64,000 nucleotides of DNA, taken from contig BCHS01000015.1 of NCBI GenBank assembly GCA_039545275.1, forward strand, positions 6,764-70,763, in the 5' to 3' direction. Shown here piece by piece: positions 45,084 to 57,246 of the stretch (position 1 is its first letter; every line of letters starts with the position of its first letter). The stretch is from Pseudomicrostroma phylloplanum. Its lineage: Eukaryota; Basidiomycota; Exobasidiomycetes; Microstromatales. The notes beneath the pieces are model-generated. The model saw only the letters and a program-made list of their open reading frames with translations, ran no database searches and was not told the DNA's origin. Position numbers and translations under genes: made by a program.

Positions 45084-47320
45084 TCAGCTGCATCCAAAGA
45101 CCTCCACGAGCTTCTGGAAGTAAGGTGTGCCCAGACCAGTCGCAGGGTCCCAGCCCTCTTCGCAGGAGAAGCCTGGCGCGCGCTCATAGTCTCCACACCA
45201 GTAGCTTCCACCAAGGGTGATGTCGTTGAGTCCAGTGTTGCCCGCATCCGCGGCAGCATACATGGCAGGCTGCATCCATCCCACTCGACCCTTTCCGTTC
45301 TCCTTGCACTTGGCATTGACCAGAGCCAGAACCGAGGCAAAGATGGGGGAAGAAGCAGATGTGCCTCCCGCGAGGTACATGTGCACTCCATCATCGGCCT
45401 TCTGCACCGTGTTGATCGACTGTCCATACGCAGCTACGTCTGGGAAACCTCGACCCTGGCCATTGTAGTACTCGGACCAGCTGTTGTTCGTAGCAGCCAG
45501 GTAATTTGTCACCGAGGCATTCTGGTACGAAGGAGTGTCAAAGTAGCGGGAGAATCCACCCGAAGACCAGCCGTTGTACAGCTCGGGCAGAGATGGCTCG
45601 TATCCTGCTCGCTCGGGGTTGAAGTTGGCGGTTCCCCCTACACCGACCACGTAAGGGCAAGAGGACATCATGTCCGACGCAAAGGGAGGGCACGTCGTCG
45701 AGTTGTTGATCGAAACACCATGGTCTCCCGTAGCAACGACGAATGTCGTGCCGAGGGCAGTCAGGATTTGTGCCTGCTGGCAGAAGTCGACGGCGTAGCT
45801 CTTGTCGATGTCGTTCTCTTGAATGCCGTACGACATCGAAACCACACCTGGGCGGTCAGCATCGGGGAGGTTGATCAGGGCCTCGACGGTGCCGGTGTAG
45901 TCCACGGTGGACATGTAGGCAGTCAAGTTGAGCCCATAACCGACGCCGATTGCACACTCGATGTCGAGGATCGCCTCTCCATCGTCGACGGTGATGTTGC
46001 TGTCCCACAATCCAATGTCATCGCCTAGGTAGGCCCTGTTGGGAAGGTAACCTGCCGGGGCCTTGGGCTGGTGCAGAGAGTTGAACGACAGCACCGACTG
46101 ATTCTGCCAGACTCCGTAGGCGACGACGGCAAGCGACTCGATGTCCTTGGTGGGCGTGTAGAGGTCGGTGCCGTACATGCGACTGATGCAGGCGTAACTC
46201 GCGTTGCCGTCGGAGCAGCCAGCAGGGTATGTGTGTGGGCTCGACAAGGCAGTAGGGTAGGAACGGTCGGGTGCGTAGAACGTCTTGATCCCCGAACTAG
46301 TCTGCTTGCTCGTCGTGGAAGAAGTCTTCTTGCTCGTCGTGGAAGAAGTCTTCTTGCTCGAGGACGAGGTCTTCTTCTGAGATGAAGTCGTCTTGACGGA
46401 GGAAGACAGCTTGCTGGAAGTAGCCTTGGCCGCGGTCGAAGTAGTCATCTGCTTGGTGCTGCTGGTCTTCGCTGTCGTCGAAGAGGTCTTTTTCGTGCTC
46501 GAGGTAGCATTCTTCGAAGTGGAGGTCGACGTAGCCGCCTTGGCCGGTGTGGTTTTCTTGGTGGAGGTCGTCTTCTTGGTGGACGTCGTCTTCTTTGACG
46601 AAGTAGTCTTCTTGGTGGATGTGGTCTTGCGCGAAGACGACGAAGAGCTGACGACCTTCTTCATCTGGGGGAGCTTGTTGCCTCCCTCGAAGGCACCGGT
46701 TCCTCGCCTCGACTCTGCCCTTACAAAGTCGGATACGCCCCTGACGTGGAGGACGTGCTCGTCCAGGTGGTCCGGCAGCTCATAATGCAGCGCTCGGGTA
46801 AAGACCTCTCCAGAAGGGGCGTGCTCGTAGTCGTGCATGCGAGTGTTGAAGAGCTGGGCAGAGTGGGTAGCGGAAGGATGTCAGCTATAGTCTCCCCATG
46901 ACCACTTGGATACCCTCGCAGCCGACTCACTCGAGCTACTGTGCCGACGTTCGACTTCACAGTGACGACGTCCTCGTGGGCGCTGTACGCAATCTCATCC
47001 CTAGCAACTCCACCGCTCGCGAGGAACTCCTCGACATGCCTCTTTGCCATCTCAGAAGGGCGTGTGTAGTAGGCCAGCTCGTCCCTCTTGAGCCAGTTGC
47101 CCCGCTCCGTGCTGATCGACAGCATTCTCGCCTCGAGCTCATGGAAGTTCTCACCTGTCAAAGCGAGGGAGAAGGTCACGGGGACCTCGGCAGCGGCGAC
47201 ATCGCGCTTGACCCAGGTCTCGGTTGCAAGGGGAACATTGCGCTTGTGGAGCTTGGCATCGACCTCTGACGAGGCGAAGTAGAAGAGGGCCGACAGGAGG
47301 AGGGAAGAAGGAAGCAACAT
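45084..47320 (-). CDS. Secreted sedolisin (S53), tripeptidyl-peptidase-like
   Basis: Two exons (46931-47320 and 45084-46853) encode 719 residues. A signal peptide (MLLPSSLLLSALFYFASS) is followed by a pro-kumamolisin domain (PVTFSLALTGENFHELEARM, then VARLFNTRMHDY joined across the intron). Then comes a Lys/Thr/Ser linker of about 125 residues made of TKKTTS-like repeats, and the catalytic domain. The sedolisin triad is visible: Glu and Asp in GEAILDIECAIG and Ser in GGTSASSPIFAS. The oxyanion Asp sits in ATGDHGV, where most members have SGDSG. DITLGG and GWDPATGLGTP fit the Ca2+-binding end. It is expected to be an acid-active secreted protease, matured by removal of the propeptide. The linker is unusually long and basic and should be heavily O-mannosylated. 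Confidence 0.92.
46306..46362 (-). repeat. Tandem coding repeat in the sedolisin linker
   Basis: A unit of about 27 bases (encoding SSTTSKKT-like sequence) is repeated back to back, part of the Thr/Lys/Ser linker. Confidence 0.7.
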
Positions 47321-48531
47321 CGCTGCCGTCGGAGGAGACTAGATGGAGGGAGGAGGTTGTGGTGCGAGGGATGGAGGACGGAAACTGAGGAGACAGCCGT
47401 CGGGTGGGCTCCTACTAATACCAGTTCGATCCTGCCAAGAATTACCTGATCGCTATGCTAGGCGGACCATTTCTTGCGGCCTATGGTCGGAGCAGCTGTC
47501 AGCCAAGGCCAGATGGACAAGCAGACGTACATGGGAACGTCTCCCTCCGGTCATCATTGCAGACGCTTTCAGCTCAGATCCGACTGCCTGCACTTCCGGC
47601 CCCATACGAAGCTGACTTCGGCCTATGGCTGTCATGCCTGCAGACGACCAAAGCCTATTCCGATACCCGTGCGGTAGGGCAGTTGCTGGGTATACGCCTG
47701 CCTACGGCAAGTTGCGGTGACTTTCTAACATTCCTGGCCACGCGCTTCCGCGTCGACGCCCTGCCGAAGTCGAACGCCTCCTTTCCTTTTGTCCGGTTCC
47801 TGCATGCGGCTGCGTCGCGCCAGCCGTTGTGGGAACCTCGGCATATTCTAGATGTTCACTCAGCAAGAAAATACCCGGACCCGATGCTTGGCCCCCAGTT
47901 ACAGCCGCCAATTCGGGAAAGGGGAGCAACTTCGAATCTCACTTCCTGCGGAAGTATTAGCTCGAGAAGAGGAGGACAAAACACCATTTCGGAATACTGA
48001 GGACTACAAGGGCTGGTCCCGGGCACATCGGGCCTGCTCACAGGTAGCGTGTCCGGGAACATTTGGCCTGCTCACGCATCTCACGACGTGCTGGTAGCGC
48101 CCGTCCCTCAACGATCGTCCGCATTTCTGCTGCTGCTACCACTCGGACGATTGTGACTGCTACTAGCGCTTTCTCCATGGCGCTTTGATGACCACTGCGT
48201 GAGAGTGCAGCGTCGGAGGTGCGAGGCTAGCTGCGAGTCACGGAGCTCGAGAGTCGCTTCCCAATCGGCTTCTTGAGCCCTTTGTGGGAGGCCATCCAGT
48301 CTGCCCAGGGCCGGATCGGGGCGTGAGAATACTCAGTATCACGATGGAGGACAAGTGATGCTCACGACTACGAGTATTCGGCAACACACGCGTTCAGAGA
48401 GTTGTTCGGTTAGTCAGGCAGACAATCGTCTCGGACACTTTTGATCTGTTCCGTGGCTTTTCTTGGACCGTCCTTCACTACTTCCGTTCGAAGCTACTCG
48501 GTTCTTATTACGCTTCTTCTTTGGCCTTCAA
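47321..48531. other. Intergenic 1.2 kb flanking the secreted-protein block
   Basis: It contains the promoter of the sedolisin gene. A plus-strand open frame (47455-48000) has no recognisable features. An imperfect repeat of about 22 bases ending GGCCTGCTCAC occurs at about 48019-48040 and 48054-48075. No RNA gene was found. Confidence 0.4.
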
Positions 48532-49143
48532 TCATTCCCCCCAAGGACGCCACATTCCACTCGAGCCCTCATGGTAGTACTGTTGCTCCGGTGAGGCAGC
48601 CCGCGACCCGTGAGCACTGCTCCCGCCACCGCTTGAGCGTCTGCTTCCCTGTCGCGAAGGACTGTTTCGAGAGCTCGCACCAGGCGAAGCGTAACGACGA
48701 CGGCCACTGCCTCTAGGTGACCCAGATGTGCTAGGCTTCCCACAGGCAAAGCAGCCAAACAACTTGCCGATACCGGAGGCTTTCTTGCCGCGCTGGCCAG
48801 AGCGTGGTGGGCTGGGGCTGGGGCTGGGGGTGGGGGTGGGCACGGGTGTGGCGAAGTTGTGAGGAGATGATCCTACATCTGGTGAGGGGCTGCGTGCAGT
48901 TGATCGGGCAGTTCGGGCATTGGGAGCAGTACGCTGTGCCTGCCTGATCTCCCAAGCCGTGAGTCCCACGGCGTCAGTGTTCGGCGAGGAAGGTCGCGAT
49001 GGGGAGGAGCTCTGCACCTCCCAGACAGGTTCGTCATGTCGATTGTACCGCTGGCCATAGATGAGCTCGTGCCCTTGAGGCAGCAGCCCAGCGACATTCC
49101 CGATGAGGGCGGAAAAGAGCAAGAAGAGCTGGAGGAGTAGCAT
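48532..49143 (-). CDS. Secreted NRHGE-family protein 1
   Basis: A single-exon, 203-residue protein. A typical signal peptide (MLLLQLFLLFSALIGNVAG) starts at 49143; a TATA-like element lies about 80 bases upstream and rules against the longer open frame starting at 49221. The family motif reads NRHDE-x5-Q-x-S-S at residues about 34-47, with Asp instead of Gly. Then comes a disordered Ser/Pro stretch with HNFATP (second motif) and PTPTPSPSPSPP, then a basic segment (GKKASGIGKLFGCFACG) with two Cys, and an Arg/Ser/Gly tail. I know no matching family. It is the first of five relatives between 48.5 and 53.6 kb, all on the same strand. No enzyme motif is present, so a secreted effector or structural role is more likely than catalysis. 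Confidence 0.72.
   Translation of the reverse strand: MLLLQLFLLFSALIGNVAGLLPQGHELIYGQRYNRHDEPVWEVQSSSPSRPSSPNTDAVGLTAWEIRQAQRTAPNARTARSTARSPSPDVGSSPHNFATPVPTPTPSPSPSPPRSGQRGKKASGIGKLFGCFACGKPSTSGSPRGSGRRRYASPGASSRNSPSRQGSRRSSGGGSSAHGSRAASPEQQYYHEGSSGMWRPWGE
48813..48840 (+). repeat. G-rich tract inside NRHGE gene 1
   Basis: Plus-strand blocks of GGG/GGGG/GGGGG separated by short CT or T spacers encode the Pro-rich stretch on the other strand and could form a G-quadruplex. Confidence 0.6.
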
Positions 49144-49221
49144 GCTGAAAGCGTGTATCGTGTGTAAGGATTGAAGAATTGATGGCACACGAAGTCGCTG
49201 GATCTGCTGCAGTATTTGCAC

Positions 49222-49227
49222 TTATAA
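49222..49227 (-). promoter_or_regulatory. TATA-like element of NRHGE gene 1
   Basis: TATAAG in the minus-strand direction, about 80 bases before the chosen start codon. It supports the shorter start with the good signal peptide. Confidence 0.45.
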
Positions 49228-49431
49228 CTCATGCTTCTATTCTCATTTGAATGACCTTACAGCAATGATTTCGCGTCACGCAAGGCAATCGACTGCTATG
49301 CACCTGTCACAGCAATCAACACCGGCAAATTCAGCTGACGCCTTTGCTCGAGGCAAGCTTTGCTGCAGCGTTTCAAATCTGCGCCACATGTCCGACCTCC
49401 GAGCTGCCTTGATGCACTTGCGTTGTCAAGC

Positions 49432-50016
49432 TCACAAGCGGCCAGGAGAGTACATGTTGATGCCACTCCGAGGTTTTGCCCGCGCAGGTCTGGGAGGCGA
49501 TGGGCTGGCAGTGGTGCTGGACGAAGCCGACACTGTTTTGGTGCTCGAACAGCTTGCCAAGCTTGAGCTTATGCCCGAGATACGTTTTCCCTTTGCCTTC
49601 CTAAACCCTACTACCCCTTTGATTACGTTGACAAGCTTCTTGAGACCCTTTGTAGGCGGGCCGATGGGGACGGGCTGGGTAGAGCTCGAAGGTTTACCTG
49701 TGTCCGGACTTCTGTGGGGTGTCGAAGCCCACCCAGAAGCTGGGGTCCTGACGGTGTTGGGCGAAGACAGCACTGGACTGCCATGAACAGAGCTTAGATC
49801 CTCACTTAAGAAGCGTGGTAGCCCATGACCCCAGGGAAACGGGGCCGGCGAAGCCTCTCCTGGTGATGAGTGCTGTGTCGATGGCACCGGCTCCCCGTGT
49901 CGATTGTGTCGAGAGCGCCAATGACGTCCCAAACGCCGTTGAAGCTGTGTGGCTCCCGCCGTATGTGTCCATATAAGACAACAGACTAGGATGATGTGAT
50001 GATTCGAGAACCTCAT
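49432..50016 (-). CDS. Secreted NRHGE-family protein 2
   Basis: A single-exon, 194-residue protein with signal peptide (MRFSNHHIILVCCLIWTHTA). The family motif is NRHGE-PVPST-Q-H-SS from residue 38, preceded by an Arg-rich strip (RRLGRHWRSRH). A second motif, NTVRTPA, lies in the Ser/Pro-rich middle. The Lys-rich segment KGLKKLVNVIKGVVGFRKAK could form an amphipathic helix. The end, SGINMYSPGRL, matches that of family member 4 (SGIRLHSPGRG). No cofactor or catalytic site is recognisable. The copy appears intact, with its own ATG and no internal stops. Confidence 0.72.
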   Translation of the reverse strand: MRFSNHHIILVCCLIWTHTAGATQLQRRLGRHWRSRHNRHGEPVPSTQHSSPGEASPAPFPWGHGLPRFLSEDLSSVHGSPVLSSPNTVRTPASGWASTPHRSPDTGKPSSSTQPVPIGPPTKGLKKLVNVIKGVVGFRKAKGKRISGISSSLASCSSTKTVSASSSTTASPSPPRPARAKPRSGINMYSPGRL

Positions 50017-50878
50017 GGATAATGGGAAGAGACGGGGGACCGCAAAATGCAGAAGGCCAGCCTATGCAGTAAGCGTGTGATAACTCGGAAAATTGCATCG
50101 AGGCGGATGACACAAGTCCAATCCAATGAAGCTAATATAAGAATCCCCACGTTACAGTGGTACCCACAATCGATTGACATTGAGCATCCGGCGGCGTATG
50201 CCGTGGATTTGATCGTTTGTCTCGAAGCTTGCTTTGTCCTAAGTCCATACGGCGAAGGGTTGCGGACGTCTCGAAGCCCGAGAGAGTCGTACTGTCACTG
50301 TTGCCTCAGCAGCCAAGAAGCGGAGCCGGCGGACAATACCGTTCTCATCGTCATCAGGGGGCAGACTCCATCTTGTACAAGCACCCCCAATGTTCCAACA
50401 TTGCTCAGAGCAACACAGCGCCCGAGCCCCACGGCAAAGCTCGGACCCTAACATCTGCTCCGGCGGCTTCGCTTTGGGGATGTGACTCCGAAGCGGACTG
50501 CCTCTTTTGCATCTTGGCCAACGAGGCAGGGGTAGGCCAGCAAGTGGACACAACACTTTGCGAGCAAAAATACCGGAGAATGCTCACCTTTGCCCTCCGT
50601 AGGCCAAAGCTTACCGGCATCGCACATGCTCTACAGCATCCGACCCGCCTGACCTTAGGCAAATATGGCATCTCAAGAGGGCGACACGTCCGAGGGCCGT
50701 TGCTCCTTGACATGATGCATGGATTGTGACAGCGGACGAATAAATAATAACGATCGAATTTCATATGGAAGATGTATGGCTACGGAGCCATACTGTCGAG
50801 AAGAGAGCGGTATGCACGCTTTATTGAGATGCCCTGAGAGGACATGGTGACCTGATTCTCCAGCCTCCTGTGGTGGAA
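50017..50878. other. Intergenic within the NRHGE block
   Basis: About 860 bases between members 2 and 3. A TTATATTA-like element on the minus strand near 50135 could serve member 2. I saw no further NRHGE motif and no convincing degenerate copy. Confidence 0.4.
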
Positions 50879-51604
50879 TCAAATGAGCACTGCCCGCCCG
50901 GCAGCGTACCTCCATCTTTGGCGTCGCGGAGCACCGTGCGTCGTCACCCTCGATGAGCTTCCAGGCTGGCCACACGAGACACATTTCTTAAGTCCTTTTC
51001 CAACATTTTTCATCGCCTTCTTGACGCTCACTTTGATACGCTGAGCAAGAGACGTGCCAGATCGTCTCGGCTCAGCGCCGACAGGTTGGCCAACGTTTGA
51101 ATTTGCACCTTGGCTGGCTCCAGTGATTCTGTCGGTACTGGTCAGACGGACGGGGCTGGACAAGCGGCTAGAAGCAGTATGCTGTGGCTGGATAGAAGGC
51201 GATGATGAATCTTCGCGTTCTGGGCTGAGCTGATGGTCTCCTGACGGACCTTGACTTGGCGTAGAGTATCGTGAGGCCTGTTCAATGCCGTCAGGAGATG
51301 AAGGGACGCTGGGTGACTGACTTCGATAGTGGCTAGAGTCAGTCCAGGAAGGCTGTCTGCGCCCCCATCTGAAGCCAGGGGGAAGCACTCGCCAGTCTGG
51401 AGAGAGTGATCCCGAGGACCATTGCGTAGCCCGGAGCCGTTCTCCGTGGCGGTTGAGACGTCCGTACTGCAACTCTGGTGAGGTTGGCATCATAGCTGAA
51501 GGAGACCCTCTTGACTCTGTCAAGAGCTGGTTCTCTGGAGACTGCAATGCTCTCGCCGATTGCATTGCGACCAGGAATGTGACTATTACGCTTGTCAATT
51601 TCAT
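50879..51604 (-). CDS. Secreted NRHGE-family protein 3
   Basis: A single-exon, 241-residue protein, the longest of the five. The signal peptide MKLTSVIVTFLVAMQSARA is followed by a spacer and the motif LNRHGE-RLRAT-Q-W-SS near residue 51. The middle is Ser/Pro/Gln-rich, with the second motif as YSTPSQG. The basic part SLAQRIKVSVKKAMKNVGKG ends in KKCVSCGQ, with two close Cys like the FGCFACG of member 1. The C-terminus (RRQRWRYAAGRAVLI) differs from members 2 and 4. The open frame is intact. Function unknown. Confidence 0.72.
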   Translation of the reverse strand: MKLTSVIVTFLVAMQSARALQSPENQLLTESRGSPSAMMPTSPELQYGRLNRHGERLRATQWSSGSLSPDWRVLPPGFRWGRRQPSWTDSSHYRSQSPSVPSSPDGIEQASRYSTPSQGPSGDHQLSPEREDSSSPSIQPQHTASSRLSSPVRLTSTDRITGASQGANSNVGQPVGAEPRRSGTSLAQRIKVSVKKAMKNVGKGLKKCVSCGQPGSSSRVTTHGAPRRQRWRYAAGRAVLI

Positions 51605-51962
51605 CTTGACTCAGTCACTGGCGAAGTCGAATGTCAGGTAGATCTGGAGCACGGGGATAGTGACTGCCTGAGGTGTGCACTCAATGTAGAGGAGTTGACA
51701 AATGACAGACAGTCGGACGCCGGCAATTATGAAGAGGCATGACATTTGAGTAGTCCAATGGCAAAGGAACTAGCAAGGGCGTCTCGCGGCAATGGTGCCA
51801 GGACGCTTGCTGCATTCCTGCACACTGACTTGGCTGCTAGCAACTGCTTCCCGGACGCGTTGCCACCGGTTTGCGCCCGGCCTGCTCTGTTGCTGCCGGC
51901 AAACCGTCATCTCAATTGATTCGTACAGTCAAGGATTTGCCGAGCGCAGACTTGCCTCGCTA
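51605..51962. other. Short intergenic between family members 3 and 4
   Basis: About 360 bases holding the promoter of member 3 and the end of member 4. No additional features were seen. Confidence 0.4.
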
Positions 51963-52613
51963 TCAGCCTCGCCCTGGCGAGTGCAATCTGATTCCACTAC
52001 ATGGCCTTGGTCGGCGCTGTGGAGGGCGTGGGGAAGGTGGAGGCGAAGGTGCGCTAGCACTGGAAGCAGTCTCATTGCAACGAGCCTGGCTGGGTCTAGC
52101 ACGAGAGCTGCAGCCCATGAATCGCTGTGCGAACCTGTGTACCAACTTGAGCAAGCCCTTCTTCTTCTGTTCGGGAAGGATTGGGCGGTCCGGGCTCACC
52201 GCTGGGGTGGGAGTCGCACTCGAGCTTTCCGTTGGGGCCGGACTCGGGCTCGCACTCGGACCTGCCGTTGAGCCTGCGCTTGGTGTGTAGACATTATGTG
52301 TTGGGGAGTGGGCAATTGACACCAGGCTCTGATGAGAAGGATGAGCAGTAGGGATGCGGCTTTGAGCAGCGGAGGTCGGGGCGGAATGTTCCAGGCTTGC
52401 AGGGAACTCCCAGGGGCTATAGTCGTACCTCGAGTCCGCAGAGGCTGTAGGTGACGAAGCCTGTGTAGCTGCAATTTCTTCGCCATGCCGATTGAGTCGT
52501 GTGCCGGTGGCCAGCTGTTGCAGATCCTCTTGCAACTGCTCAGTGCGCAGAGCGCTCACTCCGCATGCCAGGAGAGTTGCAGTGAACAGTGTGCCGGCGC
52601 CCGACAGCTTCAT
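51963..52613 (-). CDS. Secreted NRHGE-family protein 4
   Basis: A single-exon, 216-residue protein. Signal peptide MKLSGAGTLFTATLLACGVS; motif LNRHGE-EIAAT-Q-A-SS near residue 41, nearly identical in pattern to member 3 (LNRHGExxxATQxSS). The second motif is NVYTPSAG. The basic helix-like segment EQKKKGLLKLVHRFAQRFMG is followed by a Pro-rich stretch and the SGIRLHSPGRG end shared with member 2. The spread of shared pieces (front with 3, back with 2) suggests a series of duplications, possibly with gene conversion. Confidence 0.74.
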   Translation of the reverse strand: MKLSGAGTLFTATLLACGVSALRTEQLQEDLQQLATGTRLNRHGEEIAATQASSPTASADSRYDYSPWEFPASLEHSAPTSAAQSRIPTAHPSHQSLVSIAHSPTHNVYTPSAGSTAGPSASPSPAPTESSSATPTPAVSPDRPILPEQKKKGLLKLVHRFAQRFMGCSSRARPSQARCNETASSASAPSPPPSPRPPQRRPRPCSGIRLHSPGRG

Positions 52614-53139
52614 AGGAAGAAAGGAAGGGAAGGGGTGCCAGGATGCGGTTGTCAGTGATTTGGAGACCAGCTCTGTACGACGTGTAAGGAGGAACAGTGA
52701 GACTGAGCCAGCGCTCGCAGTAGTGCGACCGGGGGACGTTGTCTATCTGAAAAGGCTTCGGTCTGCACTTCTCTCCTGAATGATAAGTGCGTTAGAAACA
52801 GTGTCCACAAGCAAAGGACAAGGATCGATGTTGTAGAAGGCAAGCAATGCTGCAGTGATATAAGCCGTTGCTGTCTTCAATATACATGGCTTGTAGCGCC
52901 ACTGATGCAATCCATCTACGTAGCAATCCGTACTCTCCTAAGCTTATTTGCCCACAAAGCGTAAGAGGCATTTGCTCGCACAAGCACGGCAATCCTTTGC
53001 TCACAAGTATACAGCCATAGCTTGCTACCCCGTCTTCGAGTCGTTCTCCACAGTGAGATTGCTATGTCTTCAAACGCCGCTACCAAGGTAAGCGAAAGTG
53101 TAGTATATTGACAAAGTCATCAGTCTGGAGAAGGATTCT
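52614..53139. other. Intergenic between family members 4 and 5
   Basis: About 525 bases. A TATATC-like element (minus strand) near 52855 may be a promoter element of member 4. No gene or repeat was seen. Confidence 0.4.
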
Positions 53140-53622
53140 TCAAGTTAGAGACGACGAGGGCAGCCTGACTCCCGAAGTGCCGGTCTTCTTCTTGCCTTTC
53201 CACTTTTTCTTCAACGAGCCCACCAGCTTCTTCAGTCTCCCCTTCCGCTCAGCCACGGCCGTCCGCGGCGGCGCCTCCGGGCTGACGTTCGGCGTCGGAC
53301 TACCGCTGGGGGTATGGATATTGAATTCCGAGGAGTGTACACTCACACAGCGAGTGGGAGGCAAGCCTCGTGGAGAGGAGGGCATCGATGGCGGCGACGT
53401 CGAAGGCAGTATGAAGGCCCCGAGATCGCGAGCAGCGTCTCGTCCTTCTGACGAGCTGCTCGAGGACGACTGCTGTAGCTCTGGGATGCGCTCCCCACGG
53501 CGATTGCGACGCCAGCCACTTGAAGGCGAAGTCCGAGCGATCAGGCTGCTGGGCCTCGCAATCGTTTCTGAGGTTGCTATCAAAGCTATCAGGCCGGCGA
53601 TAAGGCAGGAAGCGACCTTCAT
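53140..53622 (-). CDS. Secreted NRHGE-family protein 5
   Basis: The shortest member, 160 residues in one exon. Signal peptide MKVASCLIAGLIALIATSE; the motif appears as NRRGE-RIPEL-Q-Q-SS near residue 40, with Arg for His. The second motif is FNIHTPSG. The basic segment GRLKKLVGSLKKKWKGKKK is strongly cationic and close to the C-terminus, which ends SGVRLPSSSLT, reminiscent of the SGIxL end of members 2 and 4. An overlapping 318-residue frame (53300-54256) on the same strand is judged spurious. Function unknown; a cationic peptide or secreted effector role is an inference. Confidence 0.72.
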   Translation of the reverse strand: MKVASCLIAGLIALIATSETIARPSSLIARTSPSSGWRRNRRGERIPELQQSSSSSSSEGRDAARDLGAFILPSTSPPSMPSSPRGLPPTRCVSVHSSEFNIHTPSGSPTPNVSPEAPPRTAVAERKGRLKKLVGSLKKKWKGKKKTGTSGVRLPSSSLT

Positions 53623-54204: not shown

Positions 54205-57200
54205 TCAACGTCCGTGAGGACCCTTTCCAATGCCTCCCATGTTGTGCTCGTTGCACTCTCGCTCAGCGCCAGGAACGCAAAGGAGCGGGCGGTGTGGGCC
54301 CCGAGGAGGAGACGCGCCGGACAAAGCCCTCTTGTGACCGAAGAACTTGTCCCATTCCTCTTTTGTTCGGCATTCTGGAGTATAGCCGCGCATACAGATC
54401 AGCGATCCCTCCTTCTTTCGTCCTGGTCCGCCTACTGCCCTTTCCTGCTGGGAGTGGGGGCAGAGCGGGTCCTCCTGAGGATCGCAGTAGGGCGTCAAAG
54501 GTGGGGCATCGAGGCGCTTACTGACGACTTCGCTTCGCTTGCCATGGGATCTGCACGAGGGGTCTTCCCAAGGATTGCAGGGCGGAGCACAGTCGGGGTC
54601 AAATTCGGGATCGCAGGCTAGAGCCTCGAGGCGCTTGTTGACGGCTTCGCTTCGCTTGGGGTGAATCAGGCAGTCGGGGTCGAGGACAGGATTGCAGTCC
54701 GGTCCTTCTTCGTGACCGCAGTCGGGGTCGTCTTCATCGTCGCATAATCGAGCCTTGATCGGCTCATTGATGACTTCGCTTCGCTTGCAGCCGGGGTCTT
54801 TAGGATCGCAGAATGCAAAACCGCACGTGGGGTCGAACTCGGGATCGCAGGCTGGGATCCTGAGCCCTCTAATGTCGACGTTGTTACTTCGCTCGTGCGG
54901 ATGGCAGTCTTGCCCCGTGGAAGGATTGCAAGTTGGGGGAGGGTCCGACTCCCTGGGGGGATCGTGCGGATGGCAGTCTTGCCCTGTGAAAGGATTGCAA
55001 GATGGGATTCCCTTGAATGTCATGCAGCCGCTGTCATCAGGGTCGCAACCGTAAGGGCCAGTCCCCCTGGGGGCGAGGCTTCGCTTGGGATGACTGAGGC
55101 AATCGGGGTCCTGTAGAGGATCGCAGTCCGGGTCTTCATCTGAGCCGCACTCCTTCTTTTCCGGGTCGCAAGTCTGAGTTGCGCGCTCAGTGACGACGTT
55201 ACTTCGCTCGTGCGGATGGCAATTTCGCCCCGTGGAAGGATCGCAAGTCGGGGGAGGGTCCACCTCCTTGGGGGGATCGTGATGGCAATTTTGGCCCGTG
55301 TAAGGATTGCAAGATGGAACACCTTTGAATGCGATGCAGCCGCTATCACCAGGGTCGCAGCCGTAAGGGCCAGTCCCCCTGGGGGCGAGGCNTCGCTTGG
55401 GATGACTGAGGCAATCGGGGTCCTGTAGAGGATCGCAGTCTGGTTCTTCATCGGATCCGCACTCCTCCTTCTCCGGGTCGCAAGCCTGAGTCGCGCGCTC
55501 AGTGACCACGTCGCTTCGCTTGCCATTGTCAGCGCATGTGGGATTGTCGTAAGGGTCGCAGAAAGGTTCATTGGAGAAGTGGCAAGTAGGGTCGTTGTCG
55601 TAGTTGCAGGAGCGAGCTGCTACGGCCTGGGCGACTTTGCGACGAGCTTCGGCTCTTGCAGGCAGTAGGGCGCATGATCCGCCGTCGTCGTCAGGGTCGC
55701 AGAAGGCTTCAGGGTTTACGTCGCGAGGGAGCTGAGAGGCAGCCTGCTCCTCAAGCTCAGCACGCTCAGCTGCCATAGCACTCTCCAGCGCTCGGCGTCG
55801 CTCGTGGTCGCAGTGGTAGTCGTGAGGGTCACAGCCCCAGCAGTAGCCATAGCTCTCATTGTTGTCGCAACGACGCTTGAGCTCTGCAGCAAGCTCAGCT
55901 TCGCGTCGACGTACCAAGTCCGAGGTAGCCTCTTCGTCCGCAGGCGTACCTTGCTTGCCTGCATCTTTGGGAGGGGAGACCTTGCTGGGAAGGGCGAAGC
56001 CGACTTTCGGAGTGTCACTTGAGCGATCAAAGTAACCATTATAGGCCAGGAAGATGACTTCACCGAGTGTGTATGGCGTGGGATAGTCGCCCTGCTTGGA
56101 TCCTTGAACGAGGAAGTGGCACTTGGTGTCGTCTACGTGAACGACGCCGGCTGGGCCTCCAATGGCCAAGTTGACACCATCGAGCTCGATGGTGATTGGC
56201 TTAGAGCTGCCCTTGTCACAGTCGACCTCGGCGACGATGTCACCTGCCTGGTTCTTGATTGGCTTGAGGCCTGCCTTCTTGATGAGGTCAATGGCAACGT
56301 CAGGTGGAGTGGTGAAGTAAATACTGTCGAGACTGAGGTCCGCCTTGCCCTTGTGACCACCAACGGTGATGTCCAGGGCCCATCGGTCCTTGGAGCTCTT
56401 GGAGTAGGCAGGGCTGTCGCCAGTGTCAGCCTCGATGGAGGCACCGAGGAGGAGCACACCAGGGTCTGTAAGTGCACCTGCGCCTAGAGCCAGCGAGAAG
56501 ACGTCCTGAGCGAGGACCTTGGATCCGAACAGCACCTCCAAAGTGGTCTTGCCTTTGACGTTGGAGAAGCCACCGCTGCCCTTGAGACCAAAGCCAAGAT
56601 CACCGTTGCTGAGGGTCTGCTTGTTGCCGTTGGCGTCCAAGTACATAAGGCTAGCTCCATTGAGGGGAACACCACCGAAGAGTTGCATGTCATTGAGGCT
56701 GTACTCAGTAGCGGCATTGTCATAGGCGTCCTTGACAGCTCCCACCTTCTTGGCCTTGGAGCTCTTCGATGGGTCGAAGCTCTTAGGGTTGTCCTCTACG
56801 TTCCTGGCAACGTTGAAGTCGGAGGTGAGAGAAAAGGTGTAGTTTTGTACCTGGCCACCAACAGTGACGGGGACTACGAGGAGCTGTGGGTCGATGTTGG
56901 TCCTTACAGTCTTGGTGCTAGGGGTCTTGCCACGTCGATGAAGCTTGGCATCAGGAGACTCGCGACGGTAGACGGGCAGGTGGAAGACACCCTCAGTGGA
57001 TCGCTTGCTGAGCTTGAGACTCTCTTCGTAGGCCTTGTAAGGGTTACCCGTGGCCCTCTTGAAGGCAGTCAGGGTTGGCTTGCCACCAGTAGGGACCTCA
57101 CGGGCTGAGAGAGACTCGGCGTCGCTGTTGACATGAGAAGATGTAGCGGAGTGGAGGCGAGCATCGGCGAGCCAAGGTCCAGCCACAGCAAAGTATGCTA

Positions 57201-57246
57201 CGGCTAGACTGAAGAGCGTACCCCAGTTGGTCTGGTGCAGCATCAT
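54205..57246 (-). CDS. Secreted pepsin-like pseudoenzyme with Kex2-type Cys-repeat tail
   Basis: One exon of 1013 codons with one ambiguous codon (N at 55392). Signal peptide about residues 5-28. Residues about 30-110 contain FKR, LSKR, YRR and HRR processing-like sites. Residues about 115-445 resemble a pepsin-family (A1) domain: VPVTVGGQVQNYTFSL, then LTSDFNV where DTGSSDLWV is expected; VLLLGASIEA; and the second lobe LSLDSIYFTTPPDVAIDLI, where VDTGTS is expected. Both catalytic sites are lost. From about residue 465 to the end run about 23 units of two Cys spaced 5-7 residues, mostly C[DN]P-x(2-4)-DP-x-C, many preceded by Lys-Arg (HPKR, NGKR, HGKR, SKR, NKR). This is the layout of a Kex2-cleaved multi-peptide precursor. 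A 104-codon block is duplicated in tandem. Confidence 0.8.
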   Translation of the reverse strand: MMLHQTNWGTLFSLAVAYFAVAGPWLADARLHSATSSHVNSDAESLSAREVPTGGKPTLTAFKRATGNPYKAYEESLKLSKRSTEGVFHLPVYRRESPDAKLHRRGKTPSTKTVRTNIDPQLLVVPVTVGGQVQNYTFSLTSDFNVARNVEDNPKSFDPSKSSKAKKVGAVKDAYDNAATEYSLNDMQLFGGVPLNGASLMYLDANGNKQTLSNGDLGFGLKGSGGFSNVKGKTTLEVLFGSKVLAQDVFSLALGAGALTDPGVLLLGASIEADTGDSPAYSKSSKDRWALDITVGGHKGKADLSLDSIYFTTPPDVAIDLIKKAGLKPIKNQAGDIVAEVDCDKGSSKPITIELDGVNLAIGGPAGVVHVDDTKCHFLVQGSKQGDYPTPYTLGEVIFLAYNGYFDRSSDTPKVGFALPSKVSPPKDAGKQGTPADEEATSDLVRRREAELAAELKRRCDNNESYGYCWGCDPHDYHCDHERRRALESAMAAERAELEEQAASQLPRDVNPEAFCDPDDDGGSCALLPARAEARRKVAQAVAARSCNYDNDPTCHFSNEPFCDPYDNPTCADNGKRSDVVTERATQACDPEKEECGSDEEPDCDPLQDPDCLSHPKRXLAPRGTGPYGCDPGDSGCIAFKGVPSCNPYTGQNCHHDPPKEVDPPPTCDPSTGRNCHPHERSNVVTERATQTCDPEKKECGSDEDPDCDPLQDPDCLSHPKRSLAPRGTGPYGCDPDDSGCMTFKGIPSCNPFTGQDCHPHDPPRESDPPPTCNPSTGQDCHPHERSNNVDIRGLRIPACDPEFDPTCGFAFCDPKDPGCKRSEVINEPIKARLCDDEDDPDCGHEEGPDCNPVLDPDCLIHPKRSEAVNKRLEALACDPEFDPDCAPPCNPWEDPSCRSHGKRSEVVSKRLDAPPLTPYCDPQEDPLCPHSQQERAVGGPGRKKEGSLICMRGYTPECRTKEEWDKFFGHKRALSGASPPRGPHRPLLCVPGAERECNEHNMGGIGKGPHGR
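54891..55515 (-). repeat. Two tandem 312-bp in-frame coding repeats
   Basis: The block around 55203-55515 and the block around 54891-55202 are near copies in register, offset by 312 bases (104 codons). For example, the same TCGCTTGGGATGACTGAGGC sequence starts at 55081 and at 55393. Each copy encodes five C-x(5-7)-C units and a HPKR site. They differ at scattered positions, so the duplication is not brand new. Confidence 0.85.

What the first reader, a model, noticed from the sequence alone, without database searches (positions are those of the whole stretch)
48532..53622. Tandem family of five unrecognised secreted proteins sharing NR[HR][GD]E-x5-Q-x-S-S
Five neighbouring single-exon genes on the minus strand (48532-49143, 49432-50016, 50879-51604, 51963-52613, 53140-53622) each have a signal peptide, then the motif at residues about 34-55 with exactly five residues between the acidic Glu and Gln in all copies. 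Next come a Ser/Pro-rich stretch with N-x-x-T-P-like wording and a Lys-rich, Leu/Val-spaced segment (KxLxKLV in three copies). Sequence outside these motifs is strongly diverged, as expected of fast-evolving secreted effectors or host- or competitor-facing proteins. I do not recognise the family.
Basis: partly seen in the sequence, partly recalled or inferred. Interest (0 to 1): 0.93.

Follow-up and report, generated by a model that had tools for sequence, protein, structure and literature searches.

The report
Secreted protein family in a fungus
Five neighbouring fungal genes encode a family without a known name of probably secreted, mostly unstructured, positively charged proteins that share a 16-residue signature, and a sixth bearer sits in a second cluster elsewhere in the genome; what they act on is not known.

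Summary
The five genes are real and at the stated places. All carry RxNR[HR][GD]E-x5-Q-x-SS just after a signal-peptide-like start; in 64 kb the motif occurs only there. It is not chance: all seven relatives found, one an annotated Microstroma glucosiphilum protein, keep the box. The host is therefore probably a Microstromatales fungus, not a classical smut.

Two corrections. (1) The family is larger: contig C1 holds a second cluster of eight secreted-type Ser/Pro-rich ORFs, one with the box as RQNHRGERIAESQPSS. The wider common feature is a basic amphipathic segment, in 5 of 13 proteins followed by CxxC..[KRQ]P. (2) "Fast-evolving" fits paralogues more than orthologues: g4 against M. glucosiphilum keeps 61 of 66 residues in box plus middle, 34 of 57 in signal peptide plus linker.

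Best reading: secreted, disordered, cationic proteins presenting a hairpin-like recognition box and a membrane- or surface-binding helix to microbes or plant cells. Secretion, hairpin and helix are predicted; targets are inferred. It is an unnamed family of a known kind, clustered lineage-specific secreted proteins. No expression, dN/dS or SignalP data were available.

The parts
48532..49143 (-). g1, 203-aa secreted-type protein (the frame is open upstream to a GTG at 49221)
   Evidence: box; relatives P0002 (196/203 identical) and P0005 (129/188)
49003..49050 (-). g1 box RYNRHDEPVWEVQSSS (residues 32-47)
48736..48792 (-). g1 basic segment with GCFACGKP (CxxC)
   Evidence: weak moment 0.27, fails the stricter helix cutoff
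49432..50016 (-). g2, 194-aa secreted-type protein; no orthologue found
   Evidence: AF2 model mean pLDDT 53.3, helix 126-135
49864..49911 (-). g2 box RHNRHGEPVPSTQHSS (residues 36-51)
49597..49650 (-). g2 basic amphipathic segment KGLKKLVNVIKGVVGFRK
50879..51604 (-). g3, 241-aa secreted-type protein
   Evidence: relatives P0001 (226/241) and P0004 (202/241)
51413..51460 (-). g3 box RLNRHGERLRATQWSS (residues 49-64)
50963..51052 (-). g3 basic amphipathic segment ending in KKCVSCGQP
51963..52613 (-). g4, 216-aa secreted-type protein; relative of M. glucosiphilum BCV69DRAFT_69895 (also 216 aa)
52452..52499 (-). g4 box RLNRHGEEIAATQASS (residues 39-54); strands 38-40 and 46-48 around NRHGE in the AF2 model
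52098..52172 (-). g4 basic amphipathic segment (AF2 helix 149-167) followed by Cys
53140..53622 (-). g5, 160-aa secreted-type protein
   Evidence: relative P0003 (154/160); long alignment to h6 on contig C1
53464..53511 (-). g5 box RRNRRGERIPELQQSS (residues 38-53)
53182..53250 (-). g5 Lys-rich segment RKGRLKKLVGSLKKKWKGKKKT

Best explanation
A lineage-specific family of secreted, largely disordered, strongly basic proteins kept in tandem clusters by a fungus of probable Microstromatales kinship. Inferred mode of action: the signal peptide sends them out; the conserved box right behind it forms a small beta-hairpin with its turn at NR[HR]GE that docks on one partner common to the box proteins (a processing or carrier protein, or an outside target); a Ser/Pro-rich tether separates it from a basic amphipathic helix, in some with CxxC, that binds acidic membranes or surfaces of competing microbes or plant cells. 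Shown: the ORFs, the box, its conservation, the second cluster. Predicted: secretion, disorder, hairpin, helix. Inferred: partner, membrane binding, outward-facing role.
For: Box in 5 of 5, in h6 on C1 and in 7 of 7 relatives found. Relatives of g1, g3 and g5 group with their own paralogue at 100/99; box and middle are better kept than signal peptide and linker in g3 and g4. Net charge after residue 22 is +8 to +20 in g1-g5 and +11 to +21 in h1-h8, Ser+Pro 26-34%. AF2 models are mostly low-confidence, as for disorder; strands 38-40/46-48 flank NRHGE in g4, a single bridge 37/43 in g2; helices lie at 126-135 (g2) and 149-167 (g4). Strict helix test: 12 of 13 members, 4 of 22 secreted-like control ORFs, 77 of 240 of all control ORFs. 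CxxC..[KRQ]P: 5 of 13 against 2 of 240.
Against: No expression or localisation data; signal peptides by hydropathy only. AF2 confidence is low (mean pLDDT 53.3 and 52.2). By the loose helix test 113 of 240 control ORFs and 9 of 22 secreted-like ones pass, so a basic helix alone says little. h1-h8 were picked as secreted-type ORFs of a stretch of about 15 kb after its basic helices had been noticed, so their helix count is not independent; a smaller secreted-type ORF there (L036:192-497, 101 aa, no basic helix seen) was left out. g1 fails the strict helix test. g3 is tied to the rest mainly by the box. No conserved processing site was seen. In g1 against P0005 the middle is poorly kept (28 of 46). 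A named relative is recorded as constitutively yeast-growing, which does not favour an obligatory virulence role.
Confidence: 0.45

Rival explanations
1. Plant-directed effectors that act in or on host cells: the box is an uptake or target-binding motif and the basic helix with CxxC anchors the protein to host membranes, perhaps after lipid attachment to the cysteines.
For: Clusters of small secreted proteins without domains are known as effector clusters in Ustilago maydis (PMC7823823 and PMC4081774, passages). The box sits just behind the signal peptide, where delivery motifs sit (recalled). KKCVSCG, FGCFACG and GCASCARP follow basic segments.
Against: No infection or expression data. P. glucosiphilum grew only as yeast in the tests reported (PMC7766764, passage). 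CxxC..[KRQ]P is present in only 5 of 13.
Confidence: 0.28
2. Precursors of cationic antimicrobial peptides: the box and Ser/Pro region are a pro-part and the helix is the active peptide against competitors.
For: Segments such as KGLKKLVNVIKGVVGFRK (g2), KRLLGRVFKSLKSFKKLFG (h4) and RKNGVLGRLKSALKGCASCARP (h2) are cationic and amphipathic, and in 6 of 8 C1 proteins (h1-h5, h7) the best helix window ends within 12 residues of the C-terminus. Microbial antagonism is argued to be a basic function of fungal effectors (PMC13127573, abstract and outline).
Against: Dibasic sites are not at a conserved place in g1-g5; in g1-g5 a further tail follows the helix; in g3 and g4 the best-kept part is box and middle rather than the helix.
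Confidence: 0.3
3. Proteins of the fungus's own surface or matrix: Ser/Pro-rich, perhaps O-glycosylated, held to the wall by the basic part.
For: 26-34% Ser+Pro and high positive charge; g4 is kept in a relative reported to grow as yeast.
Against: No C-terminal hydrophobic stretch for a GPI anchor (highest 19-residue mean hydropathy after residue 32 is 0.63 among 13 proteins); no wall domain matched in Pfam.
Confidence: 0.15
4. Chance open frames in GC-rich DNA.
For: Such frames are common here: 77 of 240 control ORFs passed even the strict helix test.
Against: Seven relatives with the frame and box kept; an annotated 216-aa protein of the same length as g4; motif 5 times in the window, only in these ORFs, and 0 times in 30 randomisations.
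Confidence: 0.01

Closest known systems
Cluster 19A (tin gene families) of Ustilago maydis
   Same: Clustered, divergent families of secreted proteins without recognisable domains (passages seen; two of its five families are given as 34-48% and 33-51% similar).
   Different: Other order of fungi; the 19A families are reported to have no paralogues outside that cluster, whereas here a box paralogue lies on another contig. Whether 19A proteins have a box or basic helix was not checked; no 19A sequence was compared.
Pit2 and its PID14/cMIP motif
   Same: A short motif of about 14 residues kept in an otherwise divergent secreted protein (passages seen).
   Different: PID14 has a conserved, essential Arg-Trp pair; no box of the 13 bearers has Arg-Trp.
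Helical cationic antimicrobial peptides
   Same: Basic amphipathic segment in a secreted-type protein.
   Different: No conserved cleavage site seen; a conserved N-terminal part; activity unknown.
BCV69DRAFT_69895 of Microstroma glucosiphilum (hypothetical protein)
   Same: Closest named relative, of g4: 216 aa, box and middle 61/66 identical.
   Different: Uncharacterised; no function assigned.

Membership tests
Box family described here | R-x-N-[RH]-x-[GD]-E-x5-Q-x-S-S behind a signal peptide | tested here: met
   box in 5 of 5 window proteins, in h6 and in 7 of 7 relatives; the His varies (Asn in P0004, Tyr in P0005); P0005 as reported has no signal peptide
Box family described here | Presence of the box in the other seven ORFs of the second cluster (h1-h5, h7, h8) | tested here: not met
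   0 of 7 by pattern; the box HMM lists only h6 of the eight among its 16 best
Smut-type effector clusters (19A-like) | Clustered secreted proteins without known domain | tested here: met
   secretion by hydropathy only
Smut-type effector clusters (19A-like) | Expression during plant infection and effect on virulence | not testable with these tools
   no RNA or infection data
Smut-type effector clusters (19A-like) | Sequence homology to 19A proteins | not tested
   no 19A sequence was fetched or typed
Pit2 / PID14 | Arg-Trp core of the motif | tested here: not met
   no Arg-Trp in any of 13 boxes; core as described in PMC6450895 (passages)
RxLR effectors | RxLR motif soon after the signal peptide (definition recalled) | tested here: not met
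   0 of 5 window proteins and 0 of 7 relatives have RxLR at residues 20-90; h6 has one
Cationic antimicrobial peptides | Cationic amphipathic helix | tested here: met
   12 of 13 proteins by the strict test (4 of 5 in the window), 4 of 22 secreted-like controls; by calculation only
Cationic antimicrobial peptides | Conserved processing site freeing the peptide | tested here: inconclusive
   KR/RR positions differ between the five
Cationic antimicrobial peptides | Killing activity | not testable with these tools
   needs an assay
GPI-anchored wall proteins | Hydrophobic C-terminal anchor signal | tested here: not met

The most novel reading that the evidence does not exclude
A two-cluster superfamily in Microstromatales that couples a new docking box to a modular basic helix with a CxxC tail: a general delivery-and-membrane-anchoring format for secreted proteins of these yeasts, kept across species and used against microbes or host cells.
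Probability: 0.25. Interest if true: 0.6.

Novelty: new member of a known kind. Interest (0 to 1): 0.42.

Why it matters
Secreted-protein families of Exobasidiomycetes yeasts are, to my knowledge (recalled), little studied next to those of the grass smuts. A box kept in paralogues that share only about 25-37% identity overall, and kept in all relatives found, is a precise handle: it can be mutated, pulled down and searched for. If the helix proves membrane-active, these genes would show one way in which such yeasts deal with other microbes or with their plant.

Tried and rejected
Phage records searched with g2: no match. Solved structures with profile A1: none to E 1. Pfam: weak matches only; h3's best (MISS, 23.4 bits, cutoff 27) is below cutoff. 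Literature search for NRHGE: three papers; from the listing (abstract starts) their subjects are unrelated; none was opened.

A shared upstream word: in the five 288-base upstream stretches no 7-mer or 8-mer is in four or more; one 6-mer with its reverse complement (GCTTGC/GCAAGC) is in all five, against a mean of 0.3 and a maximum of 4 such words in 100 randomisations; 7-mers in three or more number 22 against a mean of 9.5 and a maximum of 22. That is a hint at most and was not pursued.

A sixth, decayed copy at 48000-48500, suspected by eye: no tblastn hit there. A third cluster on contig C20 from two weak hits: fetched; no ORF there resembles the family by eye. Other weak own-genome hits were looked at only in part: L007, L008, L009, L012 and L014 by tblastn (none showed the box), L038 by its ORFs; those on C1:1866348, C1:1849043, C2:2004361, C2:730060, C13:429551 and C6:7990 were not, so further members may exist. 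A control ORF with WGSRRNRPDELIP (10.5 bits) matches 13 residues and lacks the Q-x-SS half. MAPK-docking patterns: hits in 3 of 5, not pursued. dN/dS: not possible, since the relatives came as proteins only. Deep branching of the paralogues is unresolved, with long-branch warnings. Fold searches were not run because of low model confidence. One search stopped part-way (wrong HMMER option; its pairwise part is used, the rest was redone); one search stopped on a start coordinate three bases off and was redone. The query therefore lacked h3's first Met. One search (Microstroma glucosiphilum in papers) found none; one search added nothing used here.
Full report
What is there. The five ORFs are at the stated coordinates on the minus strand, and the alignment shows R-x-N-R-x-x-E-x5-Q-x-S-S in all five. 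The strict motif occurs five times in the 127,996 codons of the six-frame translation, only in these ORFs, and not once in 30 Markov-1 randomisations of the window. In about 313 kb read in six frames (the window and fetched stretches, slightly overlapping), the wider pattern N[RH][HR][GD]E-x5-Q-x-SS occurs six times: these five, and one on contig C1. That is about 2% of the genome; the rest was searched only by protein similarity. Leave-one-out profiles score each member above 2000 shuffles of itself, but g1 and g3 only narrowly and without a significant HMMER E-value. Beyond the box, g2 and g4 are plain homologues (0 of 300 shuffles as good); g1-g4, g1-g5 and g4-g5 are weaker (2, 5 and 9 of 300); the other six pairs, all those with g3 included, do not stand out. 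g3 does share CxxCG[KQ]P with g1.

Further shared features. g1, g2, g4, g5 and h6 have SG[IVMA] near the C-terminus; g3 does not. g2 and g4 end in SGI-x3-SPGR plus one residue. After residue 22, Ser+Pro make up 27-33% and the net charge is +8 to +20.

Which organism. The genome has no name (17.08 Mb, 20 contigs; the window is C15:6764-70763). A search with g4 residues 20-118 found 2 proteins among 47 candidates: BCV69DRAFT_69895 of Microstroma glucosiphilum (84% identity) and P0007 (79%). I take this species to be the Pseudomicrostroma glucosiphilum of the papers (same epithet; inference). A paper lists it under Microstromatales (PMC11687029, passages), and the taxonomy places Pseudomicrostroma there, in Exobasidiomycetes and Ustilaginomycotina. 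Another reports constitutive yeast growth (PMC7766764, passages). Some members of the order were isolated from leaves, for example Jaminaea lantanae (PMC8880017, passages). So the host is probably a relative in that order, not a grass smut. The species and its way of life were not determined; a link to leaves is inference.

Relatives and evolution. Three protein searches gave 7 proteins: 5 with profile A1 (only the best 7990 candidates were scored, and P0006 was not among the hits, so that list is incomplete), 2 with g3 residues 28-115 among 17 candidates, both already known, and 2 with g4 among 47. Only P0006 carries a species name. All 7 have the box. P0001, P0002 and P0003 are close to g3, g1 and g5 (93.8, 96.6 and 96.2%); P0004 is 83.8% identical to g3 and P0005 68.6% to g1 over aligned residues. 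In the tree the relatives of g1, g3 and g5 group with their own paralogue at 100/99; the g4 trio is drawn open, the deeper branching is unresolved, and the program warns of long branches. For g1, g3 and g4 the duplications are therefore probably older than the lineages sampled; for g5 only a near-identical relative and for g2 none was found. P0005 and P0007 report the same longest-contig length (14,806), as do P0001 and P0002 (7,950); this suggests, without proving it, that the cluster is kept together.

By segment, g4 against M. glucosiphilum: signal peptide 10/22, box 14/16, middle 47/50, linker 24/35, basic segment 16/25, tail 30/44. g4 against P0007: 13/22, 15/16, 42/50, 19/35, 18/25, 33/44. 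g3 against P0004: 15/20, 15/16, 46/46, 43/66, 23/28, 28/29. In g1 against P0005 the box is kept (14/16), but the middle (28/46) is less kept than the tail (48/67). Segment borders were set by me. In g3 and g4 this looks like constraint on box and middle with a looser linker, not a protein racing throughout. dN/dS could not be computed.

The second cluster. A weak hit of g5 (E 3.67) led to a stretch of contig C1. Local tblastn showed similarity to a basic segment with CxxC there. The ORFs there and beside it include a second set of secreted-type, Ser/Pro-rich proteins: seven on the minus strand (h1-h7, C1:2108005-2114803) and one on the plus strand (h8, C1:2117086-2117580). h6 carries RQNHRGERIAESQPSS and aligns with g5 from the box through the Lys-rich segment (score 93, 0 of 200 shuffles as good). 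Across clusters 9 of 40 g-h pairs are matched by 2 of 200 shuffles or fewer, within C1 2 of 28, within the window 8 of 10. Shared local composition may inflate these counts, so h6 is a member, some of the others are probably related, and for most this is unproven; none of the other seven has the box. The common feature is a basic amphipathic segment, in g1, g3, h2, h3 and h7 with CxxC-x(0-2)-[KRQ]P (5 of 13; controls 2 of 240). The strict helix test is passed by 12 of 13 against 4 of 22 secreted-like controls and 77 of 240 of all control ORFs; the loose test is passed by 9 of 22 and 113 of 240 controls. Selection caveat: h1-h8 were chosen as secreted-type ORFs after the helices had been seen, and a secreted-type ORF of 101 aa (L036:192-497) was left out. 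Both clusters lie within about 81 kb of a contig end (start of C15; end of C1 at 2,188,168), but no telomere was seen, and the first 6,763 bases of C15 read N.

Structure. AlphaFold2 models of g2 (10 sequences) and g4 (12 sequences) are mostly of low confidence (mean pLDDT 53.3 and 52.2), as for disordered proteins. Apart from a helix at the signal peptide they show a bridge at 37/43 in g2 and strands 38-40 and 46-48 in g4 on both sides of NRHGE (pLDDT of these blocks of ten 62-72), and a helix in the basic segment (126-135; 149-167).

How it most likely works. Shown: the ORFs, the box, its conservation and the second cluster. Predicted: secretion, disorder, hairpin, helix. Inferred: the box binds one partner common to its bearers, and the helix brings the protein to acidic membranes or surfaces. 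The targets may be microbes or plant cells; I cannot decide between them. One study argues that microbial antagonism is a basic function of fungal effectors (PMC13127573, abstract and outline only).

Compared with the known. In kind this resembles effector clusters such as 19A of U. maydis: 24 secreted effectors (PMC7823823, passages), five families without recognisable domains and without paralogues outside the cluster (PMC4081774, passages). Sequence relation to 19A was not tested. It is not a Pit2-type inhibitor by motif: the Arg-Trp core of PID14 (PMC6450895, passages) is in none of the 13 boxes. RxLR is in 0 of 5 window proteins at residues 20-90. The definitions of RxLR and GPI anchor are recalled. 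A text search for NRHGE listed three papers on unrelated subjects; most subscription journals are not in that library, so an earlier mention elsewhere is possible.

Verdict. Its function is untested.

Noticed in passing
window 54205-57246 (-): 1013-aa ORF with a signal-peptide-like start, a stretch recalling an aspartic protease (by eye) and many Cys-rich CDPxxDPxC-like repeats (DNA repeats of 240 and 90 bases); no Pfam match to E 0.001.
   Followed up: no
window 45084-46880 (-) and 46721-47320 (-): Part of a Pro-kumamolisin activation domain near the start of one frame, and an upstream frame with a signal-peptide-like start: perhaps one secreted sedolisin-like gene with an intron, next to the family.
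   Followed up: no
C1:2117086-2117580 (+) (L042:2086-2580): Secreted-type protein with a very basic Gly/Arg-rich C-terminus on the opposite strand at the edge of the second cluster; its kinship to the rest is unproven.
   Followed up: partly
P0004 against g3: The relative has extra copies of an LTESRGSPSA-like unit between signal peptide and box, so the distance of the box from the N-terminus can vary.
   Followed up: no
P0005: The relative of g1 is reported without a signal peptide although the box and the rest are kept; perhaps a start or intron missed by the gene caller.
   Followed up: no
upstream of g1-g5, 288 bases each: 7-mers shared by three or more of the five upstream stretches number 22, against a mean of 9.5 and a maximum of 22 in 100 randomisations: a faint hint of common regulation.
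   Followed up: no
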